A stretch of DNA of 64,000 nucleotides, taken from Streptomyces sp. NBC_01264 (GTDB lineage Bacteria > Actinomycetota > Actinomycetes > Streptomycetales > Streptomycetaceae). The DNA lies in contig NZ_JAPEOX010000007.1 in assembly GCF_026340675.1 (NCBI RefSeq), positions 1 through 64,000 on the forward strand. The letters run 5' to 3'. Under the pieces are notes generated by a model that saw nothing but the letters and a program-made list of their open reading frames with translations, did not search any database and had not been told where the DNA came from. Shown in pieces: positions 10,758 to 29,299 of the stretch. The stretch's first letter is position 1. Every line of letters begins with the position of its first letter. The position numbers were made by a program, and so were the translations under genes.

Positions 10758-10936
10758 CGGGTCGGCCCGCCACGGGTGGGATGCCGTCGACCTGGGCGAG
10801 GGTCTGGGTGTCGTCGTTGACGTTCGCCCCACTCGGTTCACCCAACCGAACCACGACGCGGCGGCGCCTCCCCCACCCCACACCCACACCCTCCCAAGAT
10901 GCAAAAGCCACACCCGTGACCACAGGAAGAAACCGG

Positions 10937-11956
10937 ATGAGCTGCACACGTCCCGCACTCACAATCGCCACGGCACTCCTCGCCCTCACCGGACTCGCCA
11001 CCACCGCGCACGCCGACAACCACGACAAAGACCACGGCGGCGGCAAGAGCAACCACTGCTACATCAACGTCAAGGGCAACCACAACACGAACGCCTGCGG
11101 CACCGTCACCTACGGCGACAACACCATCACCGGCAACGGACATACTGTTCAGCTGGGGACCGTCCTGCCCCAGGATGGATGCACACCTCCGAGCTCCCAG
11201 ACATTGTGCGTGTACACCACTCCAGGCGAGCACATCCTCACAGTGCCGATCGGCGTACGTAGCATCGCAGTCACCGCAATCGGCGCCTCCGGCGAAAACA
11301 TCAGCGGAGCACCAGGCGGCAAGGGAGCAAGGGTAGTCACCTCCGTGCCCGTGTTCGCCGGACAAATCCTGTACATCGAAGTTGGCGCCACCGCAACCAA
11401 CTGTGACCTCTCAGGCTGCGCCAACCCCGGATACAACGGAGCCGGACAAGGAGGAGCCTTCGGCGGAGGCGGGGGCGGAGCCTCCGCCGTGCGCACACAA
11501 CCGGCAGGAACTCCCACTACTCTCGCCAGCCGCATCGCCATTGCAGGGGGCGGAGGAGGCGCGGGAACGCCCAGGGTCGGATGCACTAACCCCACCACCC
11601 TGAACGGCGCAGGAGGCGACGCCAGCAAAAAGGGCACCCAAGGCGCGCTCTGCGCTGACGGCGTCCAAGGGGGAACTGGCGGCAACCCCGGCACCGCTAC
11701 ACAGGGAGGCACCGGCGGCAGCCCCCCGGACGCCCCCTTCACCTACGACGGGGACCTGGGCCAAGGCGGAAACCCCGGATTCGGAGGCGGAGGTGGCGGA
11801 GGAGGCCTCTACGGCGGAGGCGCCGGAGGCTCACCCCGAACCATTACCGACAACATCTCTTCCGGCGGAGGCGGAGGTGGAGGTGGATCCTCACTACCGA
11901 CCACCGAAACAGTCACCTCCGAACCCGCATCCGTCACCCTCACCTTCTCCATCTGA
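10937..11956 (+). CDS. Secreted protein: C-x12-C module plus glycine-rich domain
   Basis: A 339-residue exported protein. I use ATG 10937, preceded by AGGAAG; the frame is open further upstream without a better start. The signal peptide is PALTIATALLALTGLATTAH-A. Residues about 35-75 carry the shared module (HCYINVKGNHNTNACGTV, then TYGDNTITGNGHTVQLG). The C-terminal ~240 residues are a glycine-rich beta domain (ILTVPIGVRSIAVTAIGASG, GGKGARV, long Gly runs such as FGGGGGGGGLYGGGAGG), like the Gly-rich domains found in bacterial surface proteins. The N-terminal codons closely resemble those of 26981 and 28271 while the C-terminus is unrelated, which suggests domain replacement. Confidence 0.78.
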   Translation: MSCTRPALTIATALLALTGLATTAHADNHDKDHGGGKSNHCYINVKGNHNTNACGTVTYGDNTITGNGHTVQLGTVLPQDGCTPPSSQTLCVYTTPGEHILTVPIGVRSIAVTAIGASGENISGAPGGKGARVVTSVPVFAGQILYIEVGATATNCDLSGCANPGYNGAGQGGAFGGGGGGASAVRTQPAGTPTTLASRIAIAGGGGGAGTPRVGCTNPTTLNGAGGDASKKGTQGALCADGVQGGTGGNPGTATQGGTGGSPPDAPFTYDGDLGQGGNPGFGGGGGGGGLYGGGAGGSPRTITDNISSGGGGGGGGSSLPTTETVTSEPASVTLTFSI

Positions 11957-12065
11957 GGCGCCCCGAACCTTCGGACGTGTCAGGTGGATTCCGGGGACGT
12001 GCAGGGCTGACGCAAAGTCCGGATGGATGACGTTTCTGCAGGTGAGGGGCCTGGAACGCGGAAGG

Positions 12066-12123
12066 CCGAAGCTCCGTTGAGCCGGGTGATCTCGCAAGTC
12101 GCCCTGCACCAACGGAGCTTCGG
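12066..12123. other. 14-bp perfect hairpin (GAAGCTCC type)
   Basis: CCGAAGCTCCGTTG (12066-12079) pairs exactly with CAACGGAGCTTCGG (12110-12123). It shares the GAAGCTCC/GGAGCTTC core with hairpins at 7564-7620 and 15687-15747. A short frame (GTGAAACGTCAGTCTGTC) begins right after it, so it may be the 5' end of a lost element with a masked start. Confidence 0.45.
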
Positions 12124-12180
12124 TGAAACGTCAGTCTGTCATGTCTGTGTCCGTGCTGGAGGATGCGTCTCCCGCTGAGG

Positions 12181-12335
12181 TGACCCCCGGAGTGTGGACA
12201 CAGGGGTTCATGCTGCGAGTGAGAGTTTAGCTGTCTTGTGGTGCTCTTGTTCGAACTCCATCGGGGAAAGGTAGCCCAGCGCGCTGTGGCGTCGGCGGGC
12301 GTTGTAGTAGGTGAGCCACTGGAAGATCTCCAGCC
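12181..12335 (-). pseudogene. IS3-family transposase, C-terminal remnant
   Basis: The minus strand encodes the last ~43 residues of an IS3-type orfB (LEIFQWLTYYNARRRHSALG, YLSPMEFEQEHHKTAKLSLA), ending at 12208, with TGACCCCCGGAGTGTGGACA as the probable element end at 12181. It is cut by the IS6 element starting at 12336 and differs from both other IS3 types in the window. Confidence 0.8.
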
Positions 12336-13207
12336 TCGCCTGTCGGCACTGTCACGTTGTCGGGCAGGGTGAGATGATCTTCGGGTTGTCCGTCCGGAGA
12401 GGGGCCTGATTCGTGTCGTCGAGCATGCCGTCGTATGCGAATCACCGTTACCCGGTGGAGATCATTTCGCACTGTGTGTGGCTGTACTTCCGGTTCCCGC
12501 TCTCCTTCCGTGAGGTGGAGGAGATGATGCTCGAGCGGGGCGTGGTCGTCTCCTACGAGACAATCCGCCGGTGGTGTCTGAAGTTCGGCCAGGTCTACGC
12601 CAACGCGTTGCGCCGGCGGCGCCCGCAGCCCGGCGACAAGTGGCACTTGGACGAGGTCTTCGTCAAGATCGGCGGGGTGCGGAAGTACTTGTGGCGGGCT
12701 GTGGACGCCGACGGGAACGTCCTCGACATCCTGGTGCAGAATCGACGTGACAAGGCTGCGGCCAGGCGTTTCTTCCGTCGGCTCCTCACCTCCACCGGGC
12801 AGGTGCCCCGGGTGGTCGTCACCGACAAGCTGAAGTCGTACGGGGCAGCGCACCGCGAGGTGATGCCCTCGGTGGAGCACCGTTCCCACAAGGGTTTGAA
12901 CAACCGGGCGGAGAACTCGCACCAGCCAACGAGGCAGCGGGAACGGGCTATGAAAGGGTTCCGCAGCCCGGGTGGGGCGCAACGGTTCCTGGCCGCGTTC
13001 ACCGGGATCTCACCCCACTTCAGACCCGGACGGCACCTCATGACCGCCCGCCGCCACCGCCTCGAAATGACCGTCCGCTTCGCGATCTGGGACCAGATCA
13101 CCGGCGTCGCCGGCATGCCCGCGACGGTCTGAGCAACCAGCCGCCGACGACCCCCGCACGGCCTGACGCGCAATCAAACGATCACACCACCGACAAGGTG
13201 ACAGCAC
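12336..13207 (+). mobile_element. IS6-family element, complete
   Basis: An inverted twin of the copy at 9381-10245, with termini GGCACTGTCACGTTGTCGG and, inverted from the right, GGTGCTGTCACCTTGTCGG. It is inserted between an IS3 remnant and a partial IS6 copy that lost its 5' end. Confidence 0.9.
12413..13132 (+). CDS. IS6-family transposase
   Basis: A 239-residue protein identical to that at 9457-10176, with an intact helix-turn-helix and DDE residues. Identity between inverted copies 2.2 kb apart allows recombination that would invert the gene between them. Confidence 0.93.
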   Translation: MSSSMPSYANHRYPVEIISHCVWLYFRFPLSFREVEEMMLERGVVVSYETIRRWCLKFGQVYANALRRRRPQPGDKWHLDEVFVKIGGVRKYLWRAVDADGNVLDILVQNRRDKAAARRFFRRLLTSTGQVPRVVVTDKLKSYGAAHREVMPSVEHRSHKGLNNRAENSHQPTRQRERAMKGFRSPGGAQRFLAAFTGISPHFRPGRHLMTARRHRLEMTVRFAIWDQITGVAGMPATV

Positions 13208-13868
13208 CGTACGAGAGCATCCGCCGGTGGTGTCTGAAGTTCGGCCAGGCCTACGCCAACGCGCTGCGCCGCAGGCGCCCGCAGCCCGGCGACAAGTGGC
13301 ATCTCGACGAGGTGTTCATCAAGATCGGCGGGAAGCAGAAGTACTTGTGGCGGGCCGTCGATGCCGACGGAAACGTCCTGGACATCCTGGTCCAGAGCCG
13401 GCGTGACAAGGCTGCGGCCAGGCGTTTCTTCCGTCGGCTCCTCACCTCCACCGGGCAGGTACCCCGGGTGGTCGTGACCGACAAGCTGAGGTCGTACGGG
13501 GCAGCGCACCGGGAAGTGATGCCCTCCGTGGAGCACCGTGCCCACAAGGGCTTGAACAACCGGGCCGAGAACTCCCACCAGCCAACGAGGCAGCGGGAAC
13601 GCGCGATGAAAGGGTTCCGCAGCCCGGGTGGGGCGCAACGGTTCCTGGCCGCGTTCACCGGGATCTCACCCCACTTCCGGCCCCACCGGCACCTGATGAC
13701 CGCCGGCGGCCACCGCTTCGAGATGATGATCCGCTTCACCGTCTGGAACCAGATCACCGGCAGCACGAGGAGCCTGCTTGCCGCGGCCTGAATTACGCCC
13801 TCTACCAGGCCCTGGCACACCCTGACGCGCAATCAAACGATCACGCCGCCGACAACGTGACAGTGCCC
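13208..13868 (+). mobile_element. IS6 remnant, 3' three quarters
   Basis: A type 1 IS6 transposase from YESIRRWCLKFGQAYANAL to its end at 13791 (variant KIGGKQKYLW), plus the right terminus (CGCCGACAACGTGACAGTGCC). The first ~55 codons are replaced by the neighbouring complete element. The same GGKQ variant occurs at 21026-21596. Confidence 0.85.
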
Positions 13869-13871
13869 ACC

Positions 13872-15053
13872 CTAGGAGTGTCCGTTCCGGCTGCGGATCG
13901 CGATACCGAACGGGCTGTTGCCGATGCCGTCCTCAATGGTCCCGATGACGCTATCGTCATGGGTGTCGATCACCGACACACTGCCCGAGACCTGGCTGGT
14001 GACGTACGCGCGATGTGCCTTGCGCGTAATGGCGACAGCGATGGGCTCGTCACCGATGCCGTCCTCAATGGTCCCGATGACGCTATCGTCATGGGTGTCG
14101 ATCACCGACACACTGTCCGAGTTCCTGTTGGCCACGTAGAGGCGGGAGCCGTCCGGGGTGACAGCCAGACCGAGCGGGAGTTCGCCGAGTCCGTCACTGT
14201 GAGTGATCTTCGAGACGACGGTGTTGGTTGCGATGTCGATGACCGCCACGCTGCCGTCCTGCTTGCCTGCTGCGTCCGTGACGTAGGCGCGGGAGCCGTC
14301 CGGCGTGAACGCCACGTCGTACGGGAAGTCGCCGATGCCGTCGGTGATGACAGTGGCGAGCGTGTTGTCGCGGGTGTTGATCACCGTCACATCATTTGAC
14401 TCCTGGTTGGTGATGTAGGCGTGGGAGCCGTCGGGGGTGACTGCTACAAGAGAGGGAGCGTCTCCGATGCCGTCGCTTTGCGTGAGGACCTTGACGACGG
14501 TGTTCGTCCTGGTGTCGATGACGGAGACACTGTCCGATGCCTGGTTGGCGATGTACACCTGGGCGCCGTCCGGGGTGACCGCCATGCCATAGGGCTGTTG
14601 ACCGATGTTGTCGTCGGCCGTGAGGGTCTTGACGACGGTGTTCGTCTCGGTGTCGATGACGGAGACGCTGCCCGCGTCGAAGTTGGTGACGAAGGCGCAT
14701 GTCCTGTGAGGCGCTACCGCCACATAGACCGGCCCCTTGTCGACAGGGACGGTCGTCGCGACCGTGTTGGTGTCGGTGTCGACCACCGAGACGGTGTTCG
14801 AGCCGTAGTTGGCAACGTAGGCGAGGTCTCCGCGGCGGCCAGGAGGCTGCGCTCCTCTCCCTGCGTCCGCTGAAGAGGAACAGCCATGGCCATCCGGGTG
14901 GAATTCACCCGATGCCTGGGCCGACGACTGCGCGGACGACCAGACCAGCAACCCTGCCACAACGGTGAGGGCCGCCGTCAGCCGTCCGAGAGGGGCTCGG
15001 CGGGCCCTCTGGTCCCTTCGGCCATGGCTCTTCGGTAGTGCCTGTGCCGACAT
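13872..15053 (-). CDS. Secreted seven-bladed YVTN beta-propeller protein
   Basis: A 393-residue protein. I use the ATG at 15053 (GGGAGC upstream) although the frame is open to 15122. A twin-arginine-rich N-region (SHGRRDQRARR) precedes a hydrophobic segment (LTAALTVVAGLLVWSSAQS) and export signal. Seven repeats of about 42 residues follow, each with AYVTN or VYIAN and SVSVIDT-TNTVV, so the propeller is complete. The function of such extracellular propellers is not known here. The last two blades are nearly identical in DNA (separate entry). The stop codon is only a few bases from the terminus of the neighbouring IS6 remnant, but no blade is missing. Confidence 0.85.
   Translation of the reverse strand: MSAQALPKSHGRRDQRARRAPLGRLTAALTVVAGLLVWSSAQSSAQASGEFHPDGHGCSSSADAGRGAQPPGRRGDLAYVANYGSNTVSVVDTDTNTVATTVPVDKGPVYVAVAPHRTCAFVTNFDAGSVSVIDTETNTVVKTLTADDNIGQQPYGMAVTPDGAQVYIANQASDSVSVIDTRTNTVVKVLTQSDGIGDAPSLVAVTPDGSHAYITNQESNDVTVINTRDNTLATVITDGIGDFPYDVAFTPDGSRAYVTDAAGKQDGSVAVIDIATNTVVSKITHSDGLGELPLGLAVTPDGSRLYVANRNSDSVSVIDTHDDSVIGTIEDGIGDEPIAVAITRKAHRAYVTSQVSGSVSVIDTHDDSVIGTIEDGIGNSPFGIAIRSRNGHS
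13921..14115. repeat. 63-bp exact direct repeat in propeller gene
   Basis: Positions 13921-13983 and 14053-14115 are the same 63 bp, covering the SVSVIDTHDDSVIGTIEDG blade core in the last two blades. The other blades differ at many sites, so this pair reflects recent duplication or gene conversion. Confidence 0.8.
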
Positions 15054-15308
15054 CTTGCTCCCGATCTGTTGAGGGCCTGTGCCACTCGCCGCCGGAAGAG
15101 GCATTGGAAGGATCAGGGCCACTGCCGTCAGAGTTCAGGGCACACCTTATCGGGCGAAATTTCCAACATCATGCAGGCCACTCCGATGCGATGTGCGGGA
15201 CCGGAACCTCAGGACCGGAGCGTTCCCGGGGCATTGGCGGGCACCTCGGAGGGAGACCGGATGCGGAGCAAGGCGAACTTGGGCCTCGGCAACGGGTGAC
15301 GACGCAGC

Positions 15309-15499
15309 GCTCGATCACCATCTCCTCGACCTCACGGAAGGAGAGCGGAAGCGAAAGTGCAGCCACACGCAGTGCGCGATGATCTCGGCCGGGTGGCGGT
15401 GATTCGCGTACGACGGCGTGCTGCACGACACGATCAGGCCCCTCGCCGGACGGACAACCCGAAGATCATCTCACCCCGTCCCGACAGCGTGACAGCACC
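15309..15499 (-). mobile_element. IS6 remnant, 5' end, degraded
   Basis: A minus-strand 5' part of an IS6 (CGATCACCATCTCCTCGACC through CCGACAGCGTGACAGCACC). The transposase N-terminus is frameshifted and diverged compared with other copies. Confidence 0.75.
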
Positions 15500-15507
15500 T
15501 TTCTGTC

Positions 15508-15554
15508 GGTGCTGTCACGTTATCGAGGGCGTGATCGTCTGAGGGTGCATCAGG
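15508..15554 (-). mobile_element. IS6 terminus remnant
   Basis: GGTGCTGTCACGTTATCGAG followed by GGCGTGATCGTCTGA: the 3' terminus of an IS6 with nothing of its transposase left. It lies 8 bp from the previous remnant. Confidence 0.65.
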
Positions 15555-15560
15555 CAATCC

Positions 15561-15615
15561 CCACCCTCAACTCCTTATCGGGTCACGACTCCACGCTACG
15601 AGGGGAAGGCCACCG
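15561..15615 (-). mobile_element. IS3 left-end remnant
   Basis: These 55 bp are the reverse complement of the left end of the IS3 element at 25401 (TGGCCTTCCCCTCGTAGCGT, GGAGTCGTGACCCGATAAGG), including the orfA ribosome binding site. No coding part remains. Confidence 0.75.
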
Positions 15616-15686
15616 AAGAAAACGGACAGCGCTTGCGCGAGTTGCTGGACACATCAGCCGGATGCCAGAAGTTGACCGGCACCGAC

Positions 15687-15747
15687 GGCGAAGCTCCTGG
15701 CGGGTGCGGGGACCTTGTTCGGGTGCCCGTCTGCCAGGAGCTTCGCC
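15687..15747. other. 15-bp perfect hairpin (GAAGCTCC type)
   Basis: GGCGAAGCTCCTGGC (15687-15701) pairs exactly with GCCAGGAGCTTCGCC (15733-15747). The arms and spacing match the hairpin that hides the IS5 transposase ribosome site at 7564-7620, so this is probably the leader of a lost relative of that element. Confidence 0.55.
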
Positions 15748-15812
15748 GCTTGTGCTGCAGCCTTCAAGGCTGTGCTGCGGCCGGGTGTCAGGCCGGCGGT
15801 GGAGAGATGTGG

Positions 15813-16673
15813 CTACTGGGCGGTGTTGTCGTCGAGGGTGACGGCGATGTCGCGGACCTGGTTGCTCGCGCCGAAGGTGCCGAGTTCGGTGGTCTGGCCG
15901 TTGAGGATGTTGACGCTGGCGAGGCGGTAGCCGCCGCGGCCCATGGCCTTGAACACGCTGTAGCCGGTGTTGGTGCCGGTGACGGTGTTGTAGCGGATGT
16001 CGAAGCCGGCGTCGCCTTCGATGTCGCGGCCGAGGTCGCCGAGGGATGCGATGAGGCCGTCGTTGCCGGGGGACAGCACGGAGGCGCGGTCGGTGACGGT
16101 GTCCAGGACGAAGGCGGTGGAGTCGGTGGACTCGTCGGTGTCGTTGTTGGTGTAGCCGAGCGCGGTGACACCCAGCGCGGTCTCGTTGGGGGTCTCGGCA
16201 CGCCGCAGCATGGTGTGGCTGGTGGTGGTCCTGGTGTTGAGGTCGTGGGTGAGGTTCTGGCCGGTGTCGGAGACGATGCGCATGTTGTCGGATGCCGCGT
16301 CGAAGTCGAAGCCGAACGCGGTCCCCTGCAGAGCGAGCGTGAGCACGCAGACCCTGCGGGCCTGTGCGTTCTCGGTGTCCAGGACGTAGACGCCGCCCCC
16401 GTCACCCAGGCCGTAGAGCTTTCCGTCCTGGATGCGGAAGTCGATGGCCAGGATCTTGGTGTCGCCGTCGCGCAGGCCGGTTACCTTGCCGATCGCCTGG
16501 GTCTTGGAGGGCTGGTCGACGGGGAACTCGACCAGGCGCATGTCGGTGGTCAGACCCAGCGCGATCGGAGCGCGCTCCATGGGCGGCTTGGGGTTGGCGG
16601 ACGCGGCGGCCGGCATGGCGCAGGCGGCAGCGAGGGCGGCAGCGGCAACAGCGGTGGCGATACGCAGGTTCAC
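15813..16673 (-). CDS. Secreted DUF4394-domain protein
   Basis: A 286-residue exported protein starting at GTG 16673 with AAGAGGA upstream. The signal peptide is ATAVAAAALAAACAMPAAAS-A. The mature part matches the DUF4394 beta-propeller-like layout (IALGLTTDMRLVEFPVDQPS, ILAIDFRIQDGKLYGLGDGG, FDFDAASDNMRIVSDTGQNL, ALGYTNND, GDAGFDIRYN). Function is unknown. A clear paralogue lies at 35263-36135. The gene is monocistronic. Confidence 0.85.
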   Translation of the reverse strand: MNLRIATAVAAAALAAACAMPAAASANPKPPMERAPIALGLTTDMRLVEFPVDQPSKTQAIGKVTGLRDGDTKILAIDFRIQDGKLYGLGDGGGVYVLDTENAQARRVCVLTLALQGTAFGFDFDAASDNMRIVSDTGQNLTHDLNTRTTTSHTMLRRAETPNETALGVTALGYTNNDTDESTDSTAFVLDTVTDRASVLSPGNDGLIASLGDLGRDIEGDAGFDIRYNTVTGTNTGYSVFKAMGRGGYRLASVNILNGQTTELGTFGASNQVRDIAVTLDDNTAQ

Positions 16674-16882
16674 GACAGGTCCTCTTGCAGATCGAGCGGA
16701 ATCGACGCGTCGCAGCCTGACCCAACCCCGCCCCCGGCTGCCACGAGACTCGCACAGCCCCGCCTCGATCGGACCGCGCGGTCACCCACCCGGACCCCTT
16801 CAGGTTCTCAGATGCCCGGCGGTGTGCTGGCCTCGGTGCGGTGGCCGCCCCGCGGCGCAAGCGCAAGCAGGAGTGTGGGGGC

Positions 16883-16965
16883 GAGCTACGGCAGCACCGT
16901 AGGAGACGATCTTGTCGGTGGCGATGACCTTGGGCACTTTCCCTGTGGTGAAGGGTCGGCAGGAA
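16883..16965 (-). mobile_element. IS6-like remnant, internal
   Basis: The minus strand encodes VPKVIATDKIVSYGAA, matching the central catalytic block (PRVVVTDKLKSYGAAH) of IS6 transposases, with neither end of the element. It is the most diverged IS6-like scrap in the window. Confidence 0.55.
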
Positions 16966-17005
16966 AGCATTGCTGGCCCGGTGTTGGGGGTGGGGTGGCC
17001 TGTGT

Positions 17006-17305
17006 TCACCACTCGCGTCGTCTGTCGTGGACGGCCCTGGCCGTATGCCGCCCCGTCTCCGTCCCCCGTGCCGTCCAGCTGGTCACTGTGAATCCGAAGC
17101 GGGCGAGTTCTGTGGTTGCTTCGGTGAGGTCGAATCCGGCGGTGGCGTAGGTGACGGTGAGGGTGACGAGACGGTCGGCGGTCTGGATGACGGTGAGGGC
17201 GATGCCTTGGGGTACGGGCTCGGCCAGCACCACGTACGCCACTCCGGCCGCCTGTGCCTGTGTCAGTTCGTCCTCGGCCCAATGACCCGAATACATACGT
17301 TCCAT
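17006..17305 (-). CDS. Hypothetical protein
   Basis: An open frame of about 99 residues from ATG 17305 (or ATG 17296). The sequence has protein-like composition: MYSGHWAEDELTQAQAAGVA, then YVVLAEP, ALTVIQTADRLVTLTVTYAT, FDLTEATTELARFGFTVTSW. The alternation of helix and strand suggests a small alpha/beta domain. There is no signal peptide, recognised family or clear operon. It lies between an IS6 scrap and an ISL3 remnant, so it could also be a fragment. Confidence 0.45.
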   Translation of the reverse strand: MERMYSGHWAEDELTQAQAAGVAYVVLAEPVPQGIALTVIQTADRLVTLTVTYATAGFDLTEATTELARFGFTVTSWTARGTETGRHTARAVHDRRREW

Positions 17306-17387
17306 ACCGGTACATGAGACATGAACCACCTGATTTTGGGCTCATCGCTCACATGTGTGGGTCGGTTCGTGTCCTGAGATAGCGAAC

Positions 17388-17697
17388 GCCGCACCCTGCG
17401 TAGGTTTCTGATTGTGATGATCAAGAACCTGCCGAAGGGTGCGGCGTGTCTGTGAACGTACTGGTCAGGGCGGCCGGGGTCGAGCGCACGGTGGTCGAGG
17501 AGGTGCGTGTTCACCCGGTCGAACCCGTGAAGATCGTCTCGGTGCGGCCGGACCGCAGGTGGCGGCGGCCGGCCTGCGGGGTGTGCCGCCGGCGGGCGCC
17601 GCTGTACGACCGGGGCCGCCGCAGGCGCCGACGCTCGCTGGACGAGGGGCTGCTGCGGGTCTACCTCGAGGCGGACCTGCCGCGGGTGGGGTGTGAG
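17388..17697 (+). pseudogene. ISL3-family transposase, N-terminal remnant
   Basis: A hairpin of GCCGCACCCT with AGGGTGCGGC (17388-17440) leads into a frame from about 17443 encoding the ISL3 N-terminal domain with its CxxC zinc ligand pair (RPACGVCRRRAPLYDRG) and VYLEADLPRVGC. The rest of the transposase is absent; the sequence runs directly into an IS630-type fragment. Confidence 0.65.
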
Positions 17698-17779
17698 GCA
17701 GGCGGAGGTCGCCCGGTTGCTGGGGGTGTCCCGGCAGGCGGTCGGCCAGTGGCACGCGGCGTGGCGGGAGGGCGGTCGT
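17694..17779 (+). pseudogene. IS630-type helix-turn-helix fragment
   Basis: The plus strand encodes RQAEVARLLGVSRQAVGQWH AAWREGG, the N-terminal helix-turn-helix typical of IS630-family transposases, joined to the ISL3 remnant and cut by an IS6-like terminus. Confidence 0.55.
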
Positions 17780-17780
17780 G

Positions 17781-17942
17781 GGCACTGTCACGTTATTTAA
17801 AATGGCGTGACCACGTCAGGAAATCCGGATGCATCCGAGGTGCTTGACGCGGAAAATCTCTCGCCTGATGATGCGATCCGGGGGCGCTCACCGAAGGATC
17901 TACTGACGCGTCCATGTCATACACCGTTAACGTGACAACGCC
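17781..17942. mobile_element. MITE-like 162-bp element with IS6-type ends
   Basis: It begins GGCACTGTCACGTTA, and its right end inverted reads GGCGTTGTCACGTTA, matching the window's IS6 termini. The interior has no transposase similarity. From GTG 17807 an open frame encodes 42 residues (NPDASEVLDAENLSPDDAIR), with no support for expression. Elements with transposase-compatible ends and no transposase fit a MITE, but two unrelated IS6 ends that came together by chance are also possible. Confidence 0.5.
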
Positions 17943-18366
<424 letters not shown>

Positions 18367-18399
18367 TCCGCACCTCCACAGCCACGCCAACACGACGTG

Positions 18400-18630
18400 G
18401 GACCTTGACCCCAGGTTTTGGACACCGGAGACACTTGGATCTTGATGGTCCAGGAGAACGGAGTCCCTGTGGGGATGAAGCACTATCCCGCCGAGTTCAA
18501 GGCGGACGCGGTCGCGTTGTACCGGTCGAGGCCGGGAGCGACGATCAAGTCGGTCGCCGCTGATCTCGGGGTGAACACCGAGACGCTGAGGAACTGGATC
18601 CGGGCCGCCGACGGCCGCCGACCTGGCGCC
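18400..18630 (+). mobile_element. IS3 5' partial copy
   Basis: The first 231 bp of the IS3 element that follows, identical to it, ending at CTGGCGCC inside orfA. The full copy begins at the next base, so the element appears to have inserted into a copy of itself, after which the outer 3' part was lost. Confidence 0.85.
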
Positions 18631-18705
18631 GGACCTTGACCCCAGGTTTTGGACACCGGAGACACTTGGATCTTGATGGTCCAGGAGAACGGAGTCCCTG
18701 TGGGG

Positions 18706-19910: not shown

Positions 19911-19938
19911 ACGTGTTCAAAATCCGGGGTCAAGGCCC

Positions 19939-21596: not shown

Positions 21597-21638
21597 CCAG
21601 CAGCTTCTCCCGGCCAGCAGGACTATGAATCAGCCCTG

Positions 21639-21741
21639 GATCACCGGCGCCGCCGGCATGCCCGCCACAGCCTGAACAACCAGCCGCCGACGGCTTCCTC
21701 ACGCCCCCAGACGATCACACCACCGACAACGTGACAACGCC
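21639..21741 (+). mobile_element. IS6 3'-end remnant
   Basis: The last 11 codons of a transposase (ITGAAGMPATA) and right terminus CACCGACAACGTGACAACGCC. It lies ~110 bp before the large adhesin gene; with the oppositely oriented remnant at 25213-25340 it brackets that gene. Confidence 0.75.
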
Positions 21742-21848
21742 CTCCCGAACGACTGCCCGTCCGGCACCTGCGCCGACCGCGCATTCCTCTGAGTATGTCC
21801 TGGATTGCACCAACAGTGGTTCGGCAGACGGAAGGTCCCGCACAGCAC

Positions 21849-24800
21849 ATGGGAAGCAGAAAGCACAGGGCTTCACGCAAGATGGCATGGGTCGGGGCCG
21901 GAACGGCCTCACTGTTGATGTCCATACTCGCGCTCCAGTATGCGAGCGCCGAAACCGGCCGCAGCCAGGTTGCGGAGTTGCCGGTGGCTCCGCCCGACTT
22001 CCGGAACGGAAGTTTTGAAAAACCTGCGGTCGGGGGTGGAATCGAGGCGCGTATTCCCGAAGGCTGGTACATGCTCGGCAGCAGCACTCCAAAGATCTAT
22101 GGAAAAGGTCAGGGAGGAGGTGCTAAAGATGGGGACCAGTTTGTCGTGGTCGATAGTGACCAGCTGAAGCAGAATTTTCCGGCGCAGGCGGGAAACCTGC
22201 GGTACAGCTTCTACGTCAAATCCATGCTGAGCGGTGGTACGACACTGAGGTCGACTGTGGGTGACAGTGTCAAGACGACCAGGGTGGAACCCAACAAGTG
22301 GACACCCATTACGGGTGAGTTCCATTCCTCGGGCGGTACCCAGGCTGTCCTTCTGGGTGCGGTTGGCCCGGTTGCGATTGACAACCTCAAGATCGAGTAC
22401 GTGCCCGTGGTCACGGGGACTCCCAGTGCTGTTGAGCCCATGGAGTACGGAGAGAGCCGCACGGTGACGTATGACGTCACTCAGGACGGTGGGGCGCCGG
22501 GGCGGGGGGCGCTGTTCACTGTTCCCCTGCCGAAGGGGGTCGACTTCGACAAGGACAAGGTGAAGATCGATCGCATTGTGGACGGAAAGGAGGTTCCTCA
22601 GTCGGTCAAGGACGTAAAAGAGATCAACCATTCTCTGGTCGCTCCGATCGGAAGTGCTGGCGACGGTGAGCTGAAAGCCGGTGATCACTACAGGATTTCA
22701 TACCCGATCCACTTCGGTAGCAAGTCTGACGCTGCCGGGCTCAACGGAAAGTTTGAACTGAAGCCCGATCTCACCCTGGATGGAAAGAAAATTCCGCTGA
22801 CGGGTGTGAATGTTGATATCGCAACGGCTGATCTGCAATTCTTGGAGGACAGCGGTTTCAATGCCAACTCGTACGTGGTGGGCGACAAGGCCGATCTTGT
22901 TACGCACGTAAAGAACGCCGGAAAATTTGCCGCTAAAGACGTCGTCATCAAGGTCGCTCGGCCAACCGAAATCTCCGAGTCTTCGTTCGCGGCGGAGGCG
23001 GACGGTCAGGCGTGCGTGCCGGATCAAAATCGCACGGGCCTCGAATGCAAGATCGCAAAGATTGACCCCCAGGGCGATGTGAGCGTGACCTTCTCGGGAA
23101 CTGTTGGTGCTGTCAGTGCTGACGGCTCTCTCAAGGCGCAGGCCGCCCTCTCGTCGCGCACCATCGATGTGAAACCGGGGGAGAATTCCAGACTGTTCGA
23201 GAGCAAGGCAACGAGAAAAGTCGATCTAGAGGTGAAGGCGGACATCCTCAAGGACGGCTCGCCGGTCGGCAACTCGGTGAAGCCCGGCGAGAAGGTATCG
23301 CTGAGCGTGACGGCTACGAATCACGGTCCGGCCAGTCCCGCGCAGGTCGACGTAGAAGTGTCGTTGCCCAAGAACGTCGTTCCGGATGAAGAGGTGCCGG
23401 GGTACAAGGATGGAATCTGGTCCGTAGGGAAGTTGCCGGCCGGCGAAAGTGCCACGCTGAAGATCCCGGTCACTGTGCCGGCCGACGAGTCGCGGATGGA
23501 CCTCGGCACCAAGATCGGTTGGTCGTCGGGTGAGGAGTTCGACGAAACCAACCCCAGTAACAACACGTCTTCCAGGGGCGTCCAGGTCGAGCGGAATGCG
23601 AAGCTCAACGTTCAGGTGTCGGTCGTTCCTCCCGCCGGCGGTGCGCCGCAGGAGTACGTACCGGGCGACCACGTCACGTACAAGATAGCTGTGAAGAACG
23701 ACGGTCCGTCCAAGGCCTCGAAGGTGCAGATCACCCACGCCATGCCCACCGGCATGGTGCCGGGCACATGGACCGGTCCGACGGGCACGTCGTACGAGGA
23801 CGGGGTATGGACCATCCCCGGTATCGCGTCTGAGGACACTGCCGAACTGACGGTCAAGGGGGTCGTCCCCGCCGACGAGGAGAAGACGGTGCACCGAGTG
23901 TGCGTCGTAGGGGCCGACATCCCTGACCCGCGCGGTGACTACAAGACGACGTGCGATGACAAGAACGACATCTCGGGTCACATAGCGACGAGTGAGCTGA
24001 ATGTGGTGCAGCGGGCTGCGGCGCTGCTGACGGTGTCTCCGGACGGGGGCACGGGCAGCCTTCCGCTGCCGGGTCAGAAGGTGTCGTGGACCGTGAAGAC
24101 GGCGAACCCGGGTGTGTCCAAGGCGCGTGGGCTTGAGTTCGAGGTTCCGGTGCCGGCGGGTGTCGGCGATGCGGAGGCGGCGCCCGGGGAGAACGGGGGG
24201 ACGTATGAGGGCGGTCTGTGGAAGCCGGCGGATGTGCCGGGCAACGGGCAGGCCGTGCTCAAGATGACGGGTACGGTGCTCCCCGACCACGACAAGCTGG
24301 ACTATCGGGCGACCGTGAAGGCGTCGACGACGCAGTTGGACGGGAGCAAGGGCAGTAAGGTCGGCGACTCGGTGGAGAAGAGTGTTGACGTGCAGCAGGT
24401 CGCGGGTCTCGATGTGTCGATCGCGGCGCTGGACGGCAAGGACACCGTCAAGGTGGGCGAGCAGGCCAAGGTGAAGGTCACGGTGGCCAACAAGGAGGGT
24501 CCTTCGACGGCCCGCAACACGGTCGTCGAGGTCGGCCTGCCGACGGTGAACGGCCTCACCCATGACGGTGGTGCGAACTTCAACGGCGAGCCGGGTGGTG
24601 AGGGTTACGGGACGTGGAAGGTCGGAGACCTGAAGGCGGGGGAGGAGAAGTCGCTGACGCTCTCCTTCACTCCGGAGGAGGCCAAGGAGTTCCCGTTCGA
24701 CGTGCTGGCAGCCCGTTCGGATGCGGCCAACCCCGAGGAGTGCCAGGACATCTGTGCCAGCACCCGGGTGAAGGCCACCGCCGACAAGCCGGATGACCCG

Positions 24801-25007
24801 AGCAAGCCGGACGACCAGACCCCGCCGCCCGGTGACGGGCAGCAGCCTCCCGCCGACGACGGCGGAAAGGGAGACGACGGCGGGCAGTCCCTGGTCGACC
24901 AGGTCCTGGCCTCCACGGGCAGCAACGCCCTGTGGTGGGGAGGCGGAGCCCTGGGCGCGGCCGGGATCGGCGCGGCGCTGCTGATCGCGGCCCGCCGTCG
25001 CCGCTGA
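21849..25007 (+). CDS. Cell-wall-anchored DUF11-repeat adhesin (LASTG sorting signal)
   Basis: A 1052-residue surface protein. I choose ATG 21849, giving a basic N-region (MGSRKHRASRK) and hydrophobic core (MAWVGAGTASLLMSILALQY) before ASA; the frame is open to 21795. Residues about 45-195 look like a jelly-roll (DFRNGSFEKP, IPEGWYML, VAIDNLKIEY). Then come about six Ig-like DUF11-type repeats, each with a V-xxN-GPS/PA-A start (VTATNHGPASPAQVDVEVSL, VKNDGPSKASKV, VANKEGPSTARNTVVEVGLP). A Pro/Asp/Gly-rich wall spanner precedes LASTG, a membrane helix and RRRR. LAxTG is the class E sortase motif of Streptomyces. No sortase gene is visible in the window. The 5' flank is IS6 sequence, so transcription may depend on it. 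Confidence 0.88.
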   Translation: MGSRKHRASRKMAWVGAGTASLLMSILALQYASAETGRSQVAELPVAPPDFRNGSFEKPAVGGGIEARIPEGWYMLGSSTPKIYGKGQGGGAKDGDQFVVVDSDQLKQNFPAQAGNLRYSFYVKSMLSGGTTLRSTVGDSVKTTRVEPNKWTPITGEFHSSGGTQAVLLGAVGPVAIDNLKIEYVPVVTGTPSAVEPMEYGESRTVTYDVTQDGGAPGRGALFTVPLPKGVDFDKDKVKIDRIVDGKEVPQSVKDVKEINHSLVAPIGSAGDGELKAGDHYRISYPIHFGSKSDAAGLNGKFELKPDLTLDGKKIPLTGVNVDIATADLQFLEDSGFNANSYVVGDKADLVTHVKNAGKFAAKDVVIKVARPTEISESSFAAEADGQACVPDQNRTGLECKIAKIDPQGDVSVTFSGTVGAVSADGSLKAQAALSSRTIDVKPGENSRLFESKATRKVDLEVKADILKDGSPVGNSVKPGEKVSLSVTATNHGPASPAQVDVEVSLPKNVVPDEEVPGYKDGIWSVGKLPAGESATLKIPVTVPADESRMDLGTKIGWSSGEEFDETNPSNNTSSRGVQVERNAKLNVQVSVVPPAGGAPQEYVPGDHVTYKIAVKNDGPSKASKVQITHAMPTGMVPGTWTGPTGTSYEDGVWTIPGIASEDTAELTVKGVVPADEEKTVHRVCVVGADIPDPRGDYKTTCDDKNDISGHIATSELNVVQRAAALLTVSPDGGTGSLPLPGQKVSWTVKTANPGVSKARGLEFEVPVPAGVGDAEAAPGENGGTYEGGLWKPADVPGNGQAVLKMTGTVLPDHDKLDYRATVKASTTQLDGSKGSKVGDSVEKSVDVQQVAGLDVSIAALDGKDTVKVGEQAKVKVTVANKEGPSTARNTVVEVGLPTVNGLTHDGGANFNGEPGGEGYGTWKVGDLKAGEEKSLTLSFTPEEAKEFPFDVLAARSDAANPEECQDICASTRVKATADKPDDPSKPDDQTPPPGDGQQPPADDGGKGDDGGQSLVDQVLASTGSNALWWGGGALGAAGIGAALLIAARRRR

Positions 25008-25059
25008 CCCGCGGGCGCGGCACACGCGCACAGGCCCGGGCTCAGGCCCTCCCCGCAGG

Positions 25060-25092
25060 GCCGCCCCGCCTCCACCACGGAGACGGGGCGGC
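25060..25092 (+). terminator. Hairpin terminator after adhesin gene
   Basis: GCCGCCCCG (25060-25068) pairs with CGGGGCGGC (25084-25092), 53 bp after the adhesin stop. There is no long U-tract, as is common for Streptomyces terminators. Confidence 0.6.
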
Positions 25093-25212
25093 TCTGCCGG
25101 GCTTTCGCGCGCACCAGCCGAGGCTCAGCTCGTAACCGAACCGTCCTTCCGCTGGCTCCAGTTCGGGTTTCGACAGTCGAGATCTGGGAGCGGCCCAGGG
25201 TGAACTCTTCCG

Positions 25213-25340
25213 GGCGTTGTCACGTTGTCGGTGGTGTGATCGTCTGGGGGCGTGAGGAAGCCGTCGGCGGCTGGTTGTTCAGGCCGCGGAGGGCATGCCG
25301 GCGACGCCGGTGATCTGGTTCCAGATGGTGAAGCGGACGG
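25213..25340 (-). mobile_element. IS6 3'-end remnant
   Basis: Terminus GGGCGTTGTCACGTTGTCGG and the last ~25 transposase codons on the minus strand (VRFTIWNQITGVAGMPS). It is cut at 25340 by an IS3 end. Confidence 0.8.
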
Positions 25341-25400
25341 TGTGCTTCCCCTCGTAGCGTGGAGTCGTGACCCGACAAGGAGTTGATGGTGCGGACGCGG
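25341..25400 (+). mobile_element. IS3 left-end duplicate
   Basis: A 60-bp near-duplicate of the left end of the following IS3 (CTTCCCCTCGTAGCGTGGAG, GTCGTGACCCGACAAGGAGT), again a partial copy directly before a full one, as at 18400. Confidence 0.75.
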
Positions 25401-25448
25401 TGGCCTTCCCCTCGTAGCGTGGAGTCGTGACCCGATAAGGAGTTGAGG

Positions 25449-25748
25449 GTGGGGAAGCGACGTAGCTATGACGCGGAGTTCCGTGACGGGGCTGTGGGGA
25501 TCGTGTTGGAGACCGGGAAGCCGGCTGCGGAGGTTGCTCGGGATCTGGGTGTGCACGAGGGGACGCTGCAGACCTGGGTGAGTAGGGCCCGCGGGGCGGC
25601 GGAAATGGGTACGGGCCCGCTGGAGGAGTCCGAGCGGGAGGAACTGGCCCGTCTGCGGTCGGAGAATCAGCGGCTGCGCAAGGAGACCGTGGAGCTGGGG
25701 ATGGAGCGTGATGTCCTCAAGCGATGCATGGTCCTGTGGGTGAAGTAG
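25449..25748 (+). CDS. IS3-family transposase OrfA
   Basis: A 99-residue protein from GTG 25449 with AAGGAG six bases upstream; TTG 25443 is an alternative. Helix-turn-helix (GKPAAEVARDLGVHEGTLQT, WVSRAR) and a coiled-coil C-terminus (ELARLRSENQRLRKETVELG). It overlaps orfB by about 25 bp, the usual arrangement for a frameshift fusion. Confidence 0.85.
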   Translation: MGKRRSYDAEFRDGAVGIVLETGKPAAEVARDLGVHEGTLQTWVSRARGAAEMGTGPLEESEREELARLRSENQRLRKETVELGMERDVLKRCMVLWVK

Positions 25749-26674
25749 CTGAGACGGACCCGGCGGTGCTCGTCGGGGTGATCAGTGACTGCAGGACCGA
25801 GGAGAAGATCCCGCACACCGTGGCCTGCCGCGCGCTGGGCGTGTCACCGGCCTGGTACTACAAGTGGCGCGGCAGGCCCGCGAATCCGACGAAGCGTGAG
25901 GTCAGACGGGCTGCGCTGACCGAGCGGATCAAGCACTTCTTCGACGCCTCGGGCCAGACGTACGGCTCGCCCAGGATCACGCTCGATCTGTGGGCGGAGG
26001 GCTGGCAGGTGTCGGTGAACACCGTCGCCGAGGTCATGGCGGAGGAGGGCTGGTACGGCCGTGAGCCGAAGAAGCGCCGGAACCTGACCCGGCAGGGCAA
26101 GCGGCGTGCCGCCCGTGACCTGGTCGGACGGCACTTCGACGCGATCGCTCCCGACGTGCTCTGGGTAGGAGACATGACCGAGATCGACACCGGCGAGGGC
26201 AAGCTGTATCTGGCCACCGTCATCGACCTGTTCTCCCGCCGCTGCCTCGGCTATGCCATGGACGCTCACCACGACGCGGCCCTGGTGAGCGCGTCCCTGC
26301 GGATGGCCACCGCGACCCGGGGCGGCGCCGTGGACGGAGTGATCTTCCACAGCGACAGGGGCAGCGAATACACCTCCGCCGCCTACAACAGCCTGTGCGA
26401 CCGCCTCGGTGTGGTCCAGTCCATGGGCCGGGTGGGGTCCTGCTTCGACAACGCCGCCGCCGAGGCGTTCAACTCGACGATCAAGGTCGAGTACATCCAC
26501 CGGCACCGGTTCACGACCCGGGCCGAGGCCCGGATCAAGATCGCCACCTGGATCGCCGACTTCTACAACACCAGACGCCGCCACACCCGTGCCGGCGGAC
26601 TCCCGCCCGCGGAGTTCGAGCAGAAGATCAGACAGCAACGCTGCCAAGCCCACCAGAGGGCCGAAGCCGCATAG
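25724..26674 (+). CDS. IS3-family transposase OrfB
   Basis: The catalytic subunit, up to 316 residues as an open frame (the functional start may be internal, since IS3 products are usually OrfAB fusions). HTH_21-like segment, DDE core VGDMTEIDTGEGKLYLATVI, HSDRGSEYTS and AAAEAFNSTIKVE, and the C-terminal YNTRRRHTRAGGLPP. The frame is intact. Confidence 0.9.
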   Translation: MHGPVGEVAETDPAVLVGVISDCRTEEKIPHTVACRALGVSPAWYYKWRGRPANPTKREVRRAALTERIKHFFDASGQTYGSPRITLDLWAEGWQVSVNTVAEVMAEEGWYGREPKKRRNLTRQGKRRAARDLVGRHFDAIAPDVLWVGDMTEIDTGEGKLYLATVIDLFSRRCLGYAMDAHHDAALVSASLRMATATRGGAVDGVIFHSDRGSEYTSAAYNSLCDRLGVVQSMGRVGSCFDNAAAEAFNSTIKVEYIHRHRFTTRAEARIKIATWIADFYNTRRRHTRAGGLPPAEFEQKIRQQRCQAHQRAEAA

Positions 26675-26980
26675 AAGAGGACTCTACGTTTCCAGGGGAT
26701 TGACAGACGACTGCGCACATTCACTGACCGGCGACAGCTCCACCCCGAAGCAGTGACTCCGTTCCACGGAGTCTCGGGCCCGCGGCCCGTAGGGGGTATC
26801 CGCTGCGCTCCCACCCCGCTCCGCGGGCCACCTTACCTGCATCATTCTCAACCCAAGCTAAAAACAGGAAACAAAACGCTACACCAATTCACCCAACTGA
26901 ACGGCGAAGCCTCCCCCACCCCACCCCATAACCCACCCACAATACGACAGCCACACCCAACACCAACCAAGGAGAACCAG

Positions 26981-27859
26981 ATGCGCTACACACGACCAGC
27001 GCTCACCATCGCCACCACACTCCTCACCCTCACGACAGTCACCACCGCAGGCTCATACGCCGACGACAACGACCACAACGGCAGAGACAAGAACGACAAG
27101 GGCAACCACTGCTATATCAAAATCAAAGGCAACCACAACAACAGCGCTTGCAACGACATCACCTACGGCAACAACGCCACCACGGGAAACGGACACAGCG
27201 TCGGTACCGGACTCGGGACTGTGCTCCCTCCCGTGACATCCACCGGACCAGTGACTCTAACACTGAAGCAGAGTGGGGAGCTAGTCGGAAACTGGCAGAC
27301 AGGTTTGCCCATCATTCCGGTCTCCGGGAATCCCTTCATCCTTCCAGGCACTCCAGTACAGCTCAACTGCATCGCCGGCTACAGGCCCGGCCTCCGTCAC
27401 ATGTTCTTCGCCCAGATCCCACCGGGAAAGGGAATTCCTGCCCAGACGGGATATACCGACGAGATCTCCTTCGAAGAGAACTCGGCCGCGCCGCCAAGTA
27501 CTGATGTCTCGAATGCTCTCAACACTCTGCCAATCTGCACCACGGCCATCCCCGATCCGCCCTTCAAAACCGTCAACGTACTCTCTCAACCTGACCTAAC
27601 CGCCGGACAGTATACAATCAGCGGAAACAACAACTTGAACTGCCCTCAAGACCACCCGTACCTCGACCCGACATTCCCATACCCTGGGACTCCCTCCGGA
27701 GTCGGTGGTGTCCAGATCACAGCCCCATCAGGCACCACAGTGGACCAGCTCACTGTAAATACTCAGGGCGTAGTGCAATTTGACTTCACGATTCCACCAG
27801 GTCCGGGCGGAAACGTGGCCCTGAATTTGCTGTGCCTCAACACTCCCCCCACCGCGTAG
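26981..27859 (+). CDS. Secreted protein with C-x12-C module
   Basis: A 292-residue exported protein. ATG follows AAGGAGAACC. Signal peptide MRYTRPALTIATTLLTLTTV to about SYA. The shared module is at residues about 45-80 (HCYIKIKGNHNNSACNDI, TYGNNATTGNGHSVG). The C-terminal ~210 residues form a predicted beta domain with four further cysteines (VQLNCIAGYRPGLRHMFFAQ, EISFEENSAAPPSTDVSNAL, TLPICTTAIP, LNCPQDHPYLDPTFP, LNLLCLNTPP). It is closely related along its whole length to the next gene, so the pair is a tandem duplication. No known family is recognised. Confidence 0.78.
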   Translation: MRYTRPALTIATTLLTLTTVTTAGSYADDNDHNGRDKNDKGNHCYIKIKGNHNNSACNDITYGNNATTGNGHSVGTGLGTVLPPVTSTGPVTLTLKQSGELVGNWQTGLPIIPVSGNPFILPGTPVQLNCIAGYRPGLRHMFFAQIPPGKGIPAQTGYTDEISFEENSAAPPSTDVSNALNTLPICTTAIPDPPFKTVNVLSQPDLTAGQYTISGNNNLNCPQDHPYLDPTFPYPGTPSGVGGVQITAPSGTTVDQLTVNTQGVVQFDFTIPPGPGGNVALNLLCLNTPPTA

Positions 27860-28187
27860 CCTCAATCAGGTCACGTCCCCGCAGTGGCTTCCAGCGATCA
27901 AACCCAAAAATTCTGACCGCAGCCAGAATCGATGCAGGACGTAATCCCCAGCCTTGACAATCTGTCAGCTTGGGAGGATATCCGTCGGAACCCGCAGGAG
28001 GGGCAGGAGCCAAGAAAACTCCCGAAAAAATCGCCATTTCACACTCGGCAGAACGCCATCCACACTGCAGACGCGCACCCACTTGTACGAGCCCTGGACC
28101 GGCCGCGCAGGCCAGGATCTGCCCGCCGCATCCACCACCCCGCATGCCCGTAGCCCCAAGCGCCCCTCCCCTCCCGCAAGACACGCA

Positions 28188-28222
28188 GGGCCCCTGCTGC
28201 CTCTTCCAGCGGCAGGGGGCCC
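28188..28222. promoter_or_regulatory. Hairpin in intergenic leader
   Basis: GGGCCCCTGC (28188-28197) pairs with GCAGGGGGCCC (28212-28222), 48 bp before the next start codon. It may terminate upstream transcription or form part of the 5' leader of 28271. Confidence 0.5.
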
Positions 28223-28270
28223 CTAACCTGCATGCAGAAGCACACCCACAGCCCCACAAGGAGACAACTG

Positions 28271-29143
28271 ATGCGACGATACACACGCACCGTACTCACG
28301 GCAGCCACCACCGCATGCCTCGCCCTCACCACCCTCGGCCCCACCGCACACGCCGACGACCACAACGACAGCAGCAAGAACAACAACTGCTTCATCAAAG
28401 TCAAAGGCAACCACAACAACAGCGCCTGCAACGACATCACCTTCGGCAACAACGCCACCACCGGAAACGGACACAGCGTCCGTACCGGACTCGGGACTGT
28501 GCTCCCTCCCACGGATACCGTACCTTCCGTGACTCTGCCAATTAAGCAACCTGGATACCTGGTCGGAAACTGGGACACCGCCACCCCCTTTATTCCAGTT
28601 CCCGGAACCAACGTTATTCCCGTAGGCGCTCTAGTCCAGCTCAATTGCGTCGCGGGCTACAAGCCCAGCCAACGCCACATGTTCCTCGCTCAATACCCGG
28701 GGGGAAATGGTCCCGCGACGACCGGCTACCTCGCCGAAATCTCCTTCGAGGAGAACCAGGCCGCGCCGCCAACTACTGAAGTCATCAATGCCCTCAACAC
28801 CCTACCGATCTGCCCTACGGCGATCCCCACCCCACCCTTCACACTGACCCAAGTGTTCAGCCAGACCTCTCAGAGTCAGACGCTAGACGTAACCAACCCC
28901 GGCGCAAGCTGCCCAGATGATCACCCGTATATTGATAGGACGTTCCCTTCCCCCACCCCCCCCCTTTTTTCTCCCACCACCCCAACCGCGGGTGTCAAGA
29001 TCGTCGCAACTAGCAATGACAATTTCGATCTACTTGAACTCGAAACGAACAGCCAAAGAGTCATCAAACTCACCACCCAAGCCATCCCCCCCTATACCGT
29101 GACCATGAGTTTGTGGTGCACCAACACCCCGCCTAGCACCTGA
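28271..29143 (+). CDS. Secreted protein with C-x12-C module (paralogue)
   Basis: A 290-residue exported protein. ATG follows AAGGAGACAACTG. Signal peptide (VLTAATTACLALTTLGPTAH-A), then the module NCFIKVKGNHNNSACNDI and TFGNNATTGNGHSVR. The C-terminal domain is homologous to that of 26981 (QLNCVAGYKPSQRHMFLAQY, EISFEENQAAPPTTEV, NALNTLPICPTAIPTPPF). Downstream of residue ~215 the two proteins diverge (DHPYIDRTFPSPTPPLFSPT). The coding region contains nine C followed by six T at 28956-28970, a likely slippage site. Separate start signals and a 411-bp gap suggest independent transcription. Confidence 0.78.
   Translation: MRRYTRTVLTAATTACLALTTLGPTAHADDHNDSSKNNNCFIKVKGNHNNSACNDITFGNNATTGNGHSVRTGLGTVLPPTDTVPSVTLPIKQPGYLVGNWDTATPFIPVPGTNVIPVGALVQLNCVAGYKPSQRHMFLAQYPGGNGPATTGYLAEISFEENQAAPPTTEVINALNTLPICPTAIPTPPFTLTQVFSQTSQSQTLDVTNPGASCPDDHPYIDRTFPSPTPPLFSPTTPTAGVKIVATSNDNFDLLELETNSQRVIKLTTQAIPPYTVTMSLWCTNTPPST
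28956..28970 (+). repeat. C9T6 homopolymer tract in coding sequence
   Basis: Nine C then six T inside the gene at 28271-29143, encoding PPLFS. Loss or gain of one base would replace the last ~55 residues. It is exceptional here because homopolymers of this length are rare in the surrounding genes. Confidence 0.85.
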
Positions 29144-29299
29144 TTCGGGGGGCGTGTCAGCGATTTGGCTCTGACAAGATTTTCGTAGTCGTTGATCGGC
29201 TTCTCTGTCACGGCAGCTGTAGTTCCGTCGTTGTCGCTGTTCAGGGACTTGCTGGGGTGGGTGCAGGCATGGGTATGGCCACCGTGATCATGAACGTTT

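What the first reader, a model, noticed from the sequence alone, without database searches (positions are those of the whole stretch)
10937..29143. Modular secreted family: constant C-x12-C N-terminus, variable C-terminus
Seen: proteins at 10937, 26981 and 28271 share signal peptide, HCYI-KGNHN-AC core and TGNGH motif, nearly alike even in codons, while 10937 has a glycine-rich domain and the other two an unrelated Cys-containing domain. The protein at 7866 has related GNxN units. Inference: the N-terminal module may be an anchoring or assembly unit (its Asn/Gly pattern recalls curli or beta-solenoid repeats) that displays exchangeable heads. I know of no named family with this arrangement.
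Basis: partly seen in the sequence, partly recalled or inferred. Interest (0 to 1): 0.75.

Follow-up and report, generated by a model that had tools for sequence, protein, structure and literature searches.

The report
Secreted Streptomyces proteins with interchangeable tails
A few Streptomyces carry sets of small exported proteins that all begin with the same control-site, signal and module cassette but end in mostly unrelated tails, a layout best known from bacterial competition proteins, so this may be an undescribed diversifying surface or antagonism repertoire.

Summary
10937, 26981 and 28271 share a signal peptide plus a C-x12-C/TGNGH module; 7866 is a distant member without those cysteines. 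The genome holds 11 strong members, all on three small contigs (316 kb of 10.67 Mb). In 26 Cys-type proteins from three genomes, modules are alike in 325 of 325 pairs and tails in 9 of 325. The conserved DNA unit is about 310 bp (box TTCACCCRACYGAA, leader, signal, module), with identity at background on both sides. Eight of the nine exact copies of the box in the genome precede family genes. Tails have an even Cys number in 25 of 26. No Pfam, NCBIfam or PDB match names the module, and it is not a chaplin by profile. Curli, beta-solenoid and anchoring were not shown; both AlphaFold2 models were poor. Best reading: a lineage-specific constant N-terminal module with polymorphic exported C-termini, probably for surface display, with antagonism second. 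Tail swapping is suggested but a formal clade test was not significant.

The parts
10837..10850 (+). Family box TTCACCCAACCGAA, 100 bp before the start of 10937
   Evidence: 9 exact matches in the genome, 8 before family genes, 0 for the reversed control; position
10937..11143 (+). Signal peptide and constant module (C-x12-C, TGNGH) of gene 10937
   Evidence: profile without window sequences, E 4.2e-32; split point
11144..11953 (+). Variable tail of 10937: glycine-rich domain (PF12810), 6 Cys
   Evidence: Pfam 5.5e-11 over residues 112-323; Cys count
26888..26901 (+). Family box TTCACCCAACTGAA, 93 bp before the start of 26981
26981..27196 (+). Signal peptide and constant module of gene 26981
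   Evidence: profile without window sequences, E 3.2e-29
27197..27856 (+). Variable tail of 26981, 4 Cys, no known family
   Evidence: no Pfam match; 52% identical to the tail of 28271
28271..28474 (+). Signal peptide and constant module of gene 28271; no box upstream
   Evidence: profile without window sequences, E 2.7e-28; box absent
28475..29140 (+). Variable tail of 28271, 4 Cys, same type as the tail of 26981
   Evidence: AlphaFold2 model of low confidence, beta-rich
7866..8081 (+). Signal peptide and Cys-less variant of the module, gene 7866; no box upstream
   Evidence: profile without window sequences, E 6.2e-8; core-only 6.7e-4 or 1.2 depending on the profile
8082..8417 (+). Tail of 7866, no known family
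   Evidence: no Pfam or NCBIfam match

Best explanation
A multigene family of small exported Streptomyces proteins. Each Cys-type gene joins a constant 5' cassette (box in most copies, leader, signal peptide and an about 35-residue Asn/Gly/His-rich module with a C-x12-C pair) to one of many tails of about 40-275 residues. Shown: the constant/variable architecture, the sharp DNA borders, the family-specific box, the multi-copy repertoire on small IS-rich contigs, and paired cysteines. Inferred: the tails are disulfide-bonded extracellular domains; the module holds them together or on the producer's surface by homotypic contacts or by binding the envelope or sheath; a shared regulator acting at the box switches the genes on as a set, so the heads are displayed in parallel. 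New heads arise when the cassette becomes joined to other downstream sequence by recombination in IS-rich DNA.
For: Modules alike in 325 of 325 pairs, tails in 9 of 325. Cassette borders sharp in DNA: identity 0.75 over -105..-1 and 0.73 over signal plus module, tails and further upstream at shuffled level. Box at -91 to -101 in 8 genes, 8 of 9 genome copies. Even Cys number in 25 of 26 tails. No membrane-like stretch in the mature parts by a simple hydropathy scan. All 11 strong members on C5, C7 and C9. A rodlin gene on the same contig, C7. A published precedent proposes surface anchoring or clustering for such constant N-terminal domains (PMC3482391 section 37).
Against: No localisation data and no anchor motif or helix found. 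The module has no relation to chaplins by profile. AlphaFold2 does not fold it. Two Cys-type own-genome genes (28271, C9:30142) lack the box, and 7866 has none. Head exchange is not proven: clade tests give p-AU 0.10, 0.11 and 0.26, and some tail relatives are also nearest by module (26981/28271; P0027 with P0004 and P0018; C9:40424 with 10937).
Confidence: 0.42

Rival explanations
1. Secreted polymorphic antagonism proteins: the module is a delivery, anchoring or clustering domain and the tails are diverse toxins or receptor-binding heads used against other bacteria.
For: Same layout as the MAFB-N, Microscilla-N and APD1/2 proteins (PMC3482391). Tail GC3 differs from module GC3, as expected of imported heads. 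Streptomyces do deploy secreted toxin particles with diversified parts (PMC11062931, passages).
Against: No toxin domain found: Pfam is silent for 26981, 28271, 7866 and for 16 of 16 further members, and PADLOC for 10. No immunity-like gene was recognised next to the members in crude gene calls (ORFs under 80 aa not called). Paired cysteines are more usual in domains that stay outside the cell (general knowledge).
Confidence: 0.27
2. The module is an export, folding or maturation leader that is cut off, and the tails act as free soluble proteins.
For: The module follows the signal peptide directly, and the models show it without confident structure.
Against: The module has an own Cys pair and strict G/N/H positions, more than a spacer would need; no recognition site for a protease was looked for.
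Confidence: 0.13
3. Duplication, fusion and decay in an IS-rich region: the cassette was scattered and the tails are drifting or random downstream sequence without a selected function.
For: IS-dense context. Truncated or apparently frame-shifted members exist: P0025 and P0007.
Against: Tails stay open for 98-273 codons in the ten Cys-type genes of this genome, and 25 of 26 tails have an even Cys number. One tail type, the glycine-rich domain, recurs in two genomes.
Confidence: 0.13

Closest known systems
Lineage-specific N-terminal domains of polymorphic toxins and effectors: MAFB-N (Neisseria), Microscilla-N, Amoebophilus APD1/APD2 (PMC3482391; section 37 read)
   Same: Conserved domain next to the signal peptide, restricted to one lineage, polymorphic C-termini in many copies per genome.
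   Different: No toxin domain or neighbouring immunity gene recognised; a short module of about 35 residues; a private upstream box; tails look like disulfide-bonded exported domains; sequence unrelated as far as the family searches show.
Chaplins (PF03777) and rodlins (NF041022)
   Same: Small exported Streptomyces proteins, Gly/Asn-rich; most chaplins seen here carry a Cys pair; a rodlin gene lies on the same contig.
   Different: Profile comparison finds no relation to chaplins; the window proteins do not match the rodlin model.
Umbrella toxin particles UmbA/B/C (PMC11062931; passages)
   Same: Secreted, with diversified domains on constant parts, in Streptomyces.
   Different: UmbA has a trypsin-like domain with lectins, UmbC ALF repeats and a toxin domain; no Pfam match of such kind in the window members.
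ALK/LTK glycine-rich domain (PF12810)
   Same: Tails of 10937, C9:40424 and P0026 match it.
   Different: It is only one of many tail types, and the module is not part of it.

Membership tests
Constant-N/polymorphic-C exported proteins (MAFB-N, APD1/2 type) | conserved domain directly after the signal peptide | tested here: met
Constant-N/polymorphic-C exported proteins (MAFB-N, APD1/2 type) | C-termini highly polymorphic | tested here: met
   tails alike in 9 of 325 pairs
Constant-N/polymorphic-C exported proteins (MAFB-N, APD1/2 type) | domain restricted to one lineage | tested here: met
   7 of 392 genomes of the genus after inspection; 2 of 396 in the phylum sample, both of the own genus; named protein hits all Streptomyces
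Polymorphic toxins | C-terminal toxin or effector domain | tested here: not met
   no such Pfam match; undescribed toxins cannot be excluded
Polymorphic toxins | immunity gene next to the toxin gene | tested here: inconclusive
   none recognised in crude gene calls of ORFs of 80 aa or more; small ORFs not examined
Chaplin (PF03777) | chaplin domain | tested here: not met
   Pfam silent; hhalign probability 0.65% and 0.25%
Rodlin (NF041022) | match to the rodlin model | tested here: not met
   four window proteins without a match to it
Curli-type amyloid | curlin repeat match | tested here: not met
   no Pfam match at E<=1 in the four window proteins for the module, nor in 16 further members
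Curli-type amyloid | fibre formation | not testable with these tools
   needs purified protein
Sortase-anchored surface proteins | C-terminal sorting motif and membrane helix | tested here: not met
   no mature stretch of high hydropathy; the loose LAXTG-like pattern was flagged in 14 of 44 rows, which I attribute to signal peptides by eye

The most novel reading that the evidence does not exclude
A plasmid- or arm-borne diversity generator of Streptomyces: a control-site, signal and module cassette of about 310 bp is repeatedly joined to new downstream sequence by recombination in IS-rich DNA. This makes strain-specific sets of disulfide-bonded proteins displayed together on hyphae, for recognising or fighting other strains: constant and variable regions in one repertoire, without an adjacent immunity partner.
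Probability: 0.22. Interest if true: 0.8.

Novelty: new variant of a known kind. Interest (0 to 1): 0.58.

Why it matters
If right, some Streptomyces diversify an exported protein set by changing heads on a fixed cassette with one family-specific control site. That would make it testable whether their hyphae use variable surface or secreted proteins for kin recognition or antagonism. The module is also a small domain that the public family libraries searched here do not hold.

Tried and rejected
Chaplin relationship: rejected by profile. Virus or phage origin: the viral contigs scan gave 38 pattern matches and no relative, and the phage records gave no match. Wider spread: the GTDB contig scan gave one locus, which I take for a chance match in an RHS-like protein, named by eye. 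Plasmid records: only CP075613.1 matched. Anti-phage defence: no PADLOC match in 10 proteins. RNA element: no Rfam match in the window at gathering scores. Sigma-70 promoters and terminators: no excess over shuffles at 26600-29300. bldA control: no TTA codon in 11 own-genome genes, first 300 codons. Structure: two AlphaFold2 jobs of low confidence, two Foldseek searches with no match at E<=0.001. Orphan tails: tblastn of 44 tails against 283,848 bases of C5, C7, C9 and the JCM17656 stretch showed none that I recognised as a tail without a module. Tail exchange by clade test: not significant.

Rows dropped or doubtful: of 14 genomes (of 392) hit, translations showed the G/N core in 7 (G000, G020, G061, G095, G207, G320, G321); the other 7 looked like signal-peptide or low-complexity likeness. 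In one search (11 of 395, mostly the same genomes) the one new hit, G531, was not inspected. G320f has unread bases and appears out of frame after them; it was kept as a row. P0011 was wrongly split (so its counts of 20 of 946 tail pairs and 615 of 946 module pairs are approximate) and corrected. G321 and P0023 have identical tails and may be one organism. A1 holds 10 of the 11 own-genome strong members, so their E-values are partly by construction; C9:32214 was not in it. Weak family matches below cut-offs: PRK04447 0.11 for 28271, MyfA/PsaA 0.016 for P0008, SH3_3 0.04, DUF4097 0.014 and DcrB 0.025 for relatives.
Full report
Observation. The four frames exist where stated. 10937, 26981 and 28271 share a signal peptide, a C-x12-C core with KGNHN and TGNGH. 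10937 goes on into a glycine-rich domain (PF12810, 5.5e-11); 26981 and 28271 go on into tails with four cysteines, 52% alike, without a Pfam match and without an NCBIfam match near its cut-off. A profile with no window sequence finds all four, 7866 at E 6.2e-8. 7866 lacks the module cysteines; on the mature core its score depends on Cys-less plasmid relatives being in the profile (6.7e-4 against 1.2).

Extent. The genome (10.67 Mb, 10 contigs) holds 11 strong members: four on C7 (the window's contig), three on C5, four on C9. C5, C7 and C9 total 316 kb. Two weaker paralogues lie at C8:20608 and C5:101393 (E 0.0017 and 0.0036). Protein searches gave 9 proteins of NPDC086023, 7 of IBSNAI002 and 1 of H27-H1 that I used. 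A 30-kb stretch of a 192-kb linear plasmid of JCM17656 has three annotated members and a fourth module by tblastn. Of 392 genomes of the genus, 14 scored at E<=0.001 and 7 hold up on inspection, the own genome included. Of 396 in the phylum sample 2 scored at E<=1e-4, both of the own genus. The samples overlap. G320 has six places on two contigs, which look like two near-identical sets of three. G020, G207 and G061 share one tail (63-90% alike), weakly SH3-like in one (E 0.04).

Constant and variable parts. In 26 Cys-type proteins (10 own, 9 NPDC086023, 7 IBSNAI002), 325 of 325 module pairs exceed z 6 against 60 shuffles; 9 of 325 tail pairs do. Seven of these nine make three tail types: 26981/28271; 10937, C9:40424 and P0026 (glycine-rich); P0004, P0018 and P0027. 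The other two are borderline (z 6.1 and 6.5). Exchange of heads: P0026 and C9:40424 have each other's closest tails, yet rank 25th and 23rd of 25 by module. Against it: C9:40424 is nearest by module to 10937, another glycine-rich protein; 26981 and 28271 are each other's nearest; P0027 is nearest to P0004 and P0018. Clade tests give p-AU 0.097 (trio), 0.111 (pair) and 0.263 (P0004 trio), so a shared history of module and tail is not rejected.

DNA level. Among the 8 genes with the box, mean identity is 0.75 over -105..-1 (shuffled 0.57) and 0.73 over signal plus module (0.54), but 0.50-0.52 further upstream (0.49-0.52) and 0.52 in the first 150 nt of tail (0.50). The box TTCACCCRACYGAA has nine exact matches in the genome, none for the reversed control: eight lie 91-101 bp before family starts, and the ninth is inside a long open frame on C1. 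In the ten Cys-type own genes GC3 is 0.61-0.87 in the module and 0.59-0.73 in the tail, higher in the module in 9 and equal in 1. Module dS over 45 pairs is 0.19-0.79. Codon bias lowers such values, so the argument that tails were replaced rather than worn away is suggestive only.

Tails. 25 of 26 have an even Cys number, two of them zero; the exception, P0007, looks out of frame. Over all 44 rows it is 39 of 44. Pfam is silent for 16 of 16 members, and the PDB profile search of the module has no match better than E 0.11. AlphaFold2 models of 28271 and P0004 have mean pLDDT 42.0 and 50.5, modules below or around 50, tails beta-rich; Foldseek gives nothing at E<=0.001. No fold is claimed.

Context. 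By crude gene calls (ORFs of 80 aa or more) the nearest downstream neighbour is a transposase-like gene or fragment, judged by a sequence pattern or by eye, or another family gene (26981 before 28271). Only the neighbour at 29525-31828 was run through Pfam (transposase domains). 10937 lies between repeats 8942-10751 and 12339-13868. C7 also encodes a ParA-like ATPase, two DUF2637 proteins, DUF4394 twice, a DUF11 protein and a rodlin (8.2e-61). That suits a plasmid or chromosome-arm segment with surface functions; which of the two was not settled.

Reading. It works like a constant exported module with polymorphic C-termini, as described for MAFB-N, Microscilla-N and APD1/2 (PMC3482391: section 37 read; other passages). 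It is not shown to be a chaplin, curli, sortase substrate or polymorphic toxin with immunity. Umbrella toxins (PMC11062931, passages) differ in parts. Six library searches listed no paper that I recognised as being on this family; listings are capped, and most subscription papers are not held. PMC12821332 names IBSNAI002 and was seen as a listing only. I commit to parallel surface display (0.42), antagonism second (0.27), a cleaved leader (0.13) and decay (0.13) behind.

Noticed in passing
L023:15441-15890 (contig C7:97783-98232, outside the window): A rodlin gene (NF041022, E 8.2e-61) on the same small contig as the family.
   Followed up: partly
window 15813-16673 (-) and 35083-36135 (+): Two DUF4394 proteins, at least the first with a signal-like start.
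   Followed up: no
window 21795-25007 (+): A 1070-aa protein with DUF11, CARDB and related domains, perhaps a surface protein.
   Followed up: no
window 5639-5929 and 6241-6720 (+): Two small proteins with signal-like starts and no Pfam or NCBIfam match.
   Followed up: no
window 62102-63394 (-): A voltage-gated chloride channel family protein (PF00654, 3.3e-84).
   Followed up: no
L055 (C8:20608) and L056 (C5:101393): Weak paralogues of the family with a C..GNFNN.AC-like core and tails 68% alike.
   Followed up: partly
L016:24770-24853 (-), linear plasmid CP075613.1: A fourth, Cys-less module on the JCM17656 plasmid, outside the listed genes.
   Followed up: partly
contig C5:106281-109688 and 122546-123514: By eye, an RHS-like protein and one with a Hint-like stretch; not tested.
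   Followed up: no
L029, L031, L033 (G020, G207, G061): Relatives, one match per genome, with a variant module and one shared tail, weakly SH3-like; G207 is a one-contig genome. Possibly an older form.
   Followed up: partly
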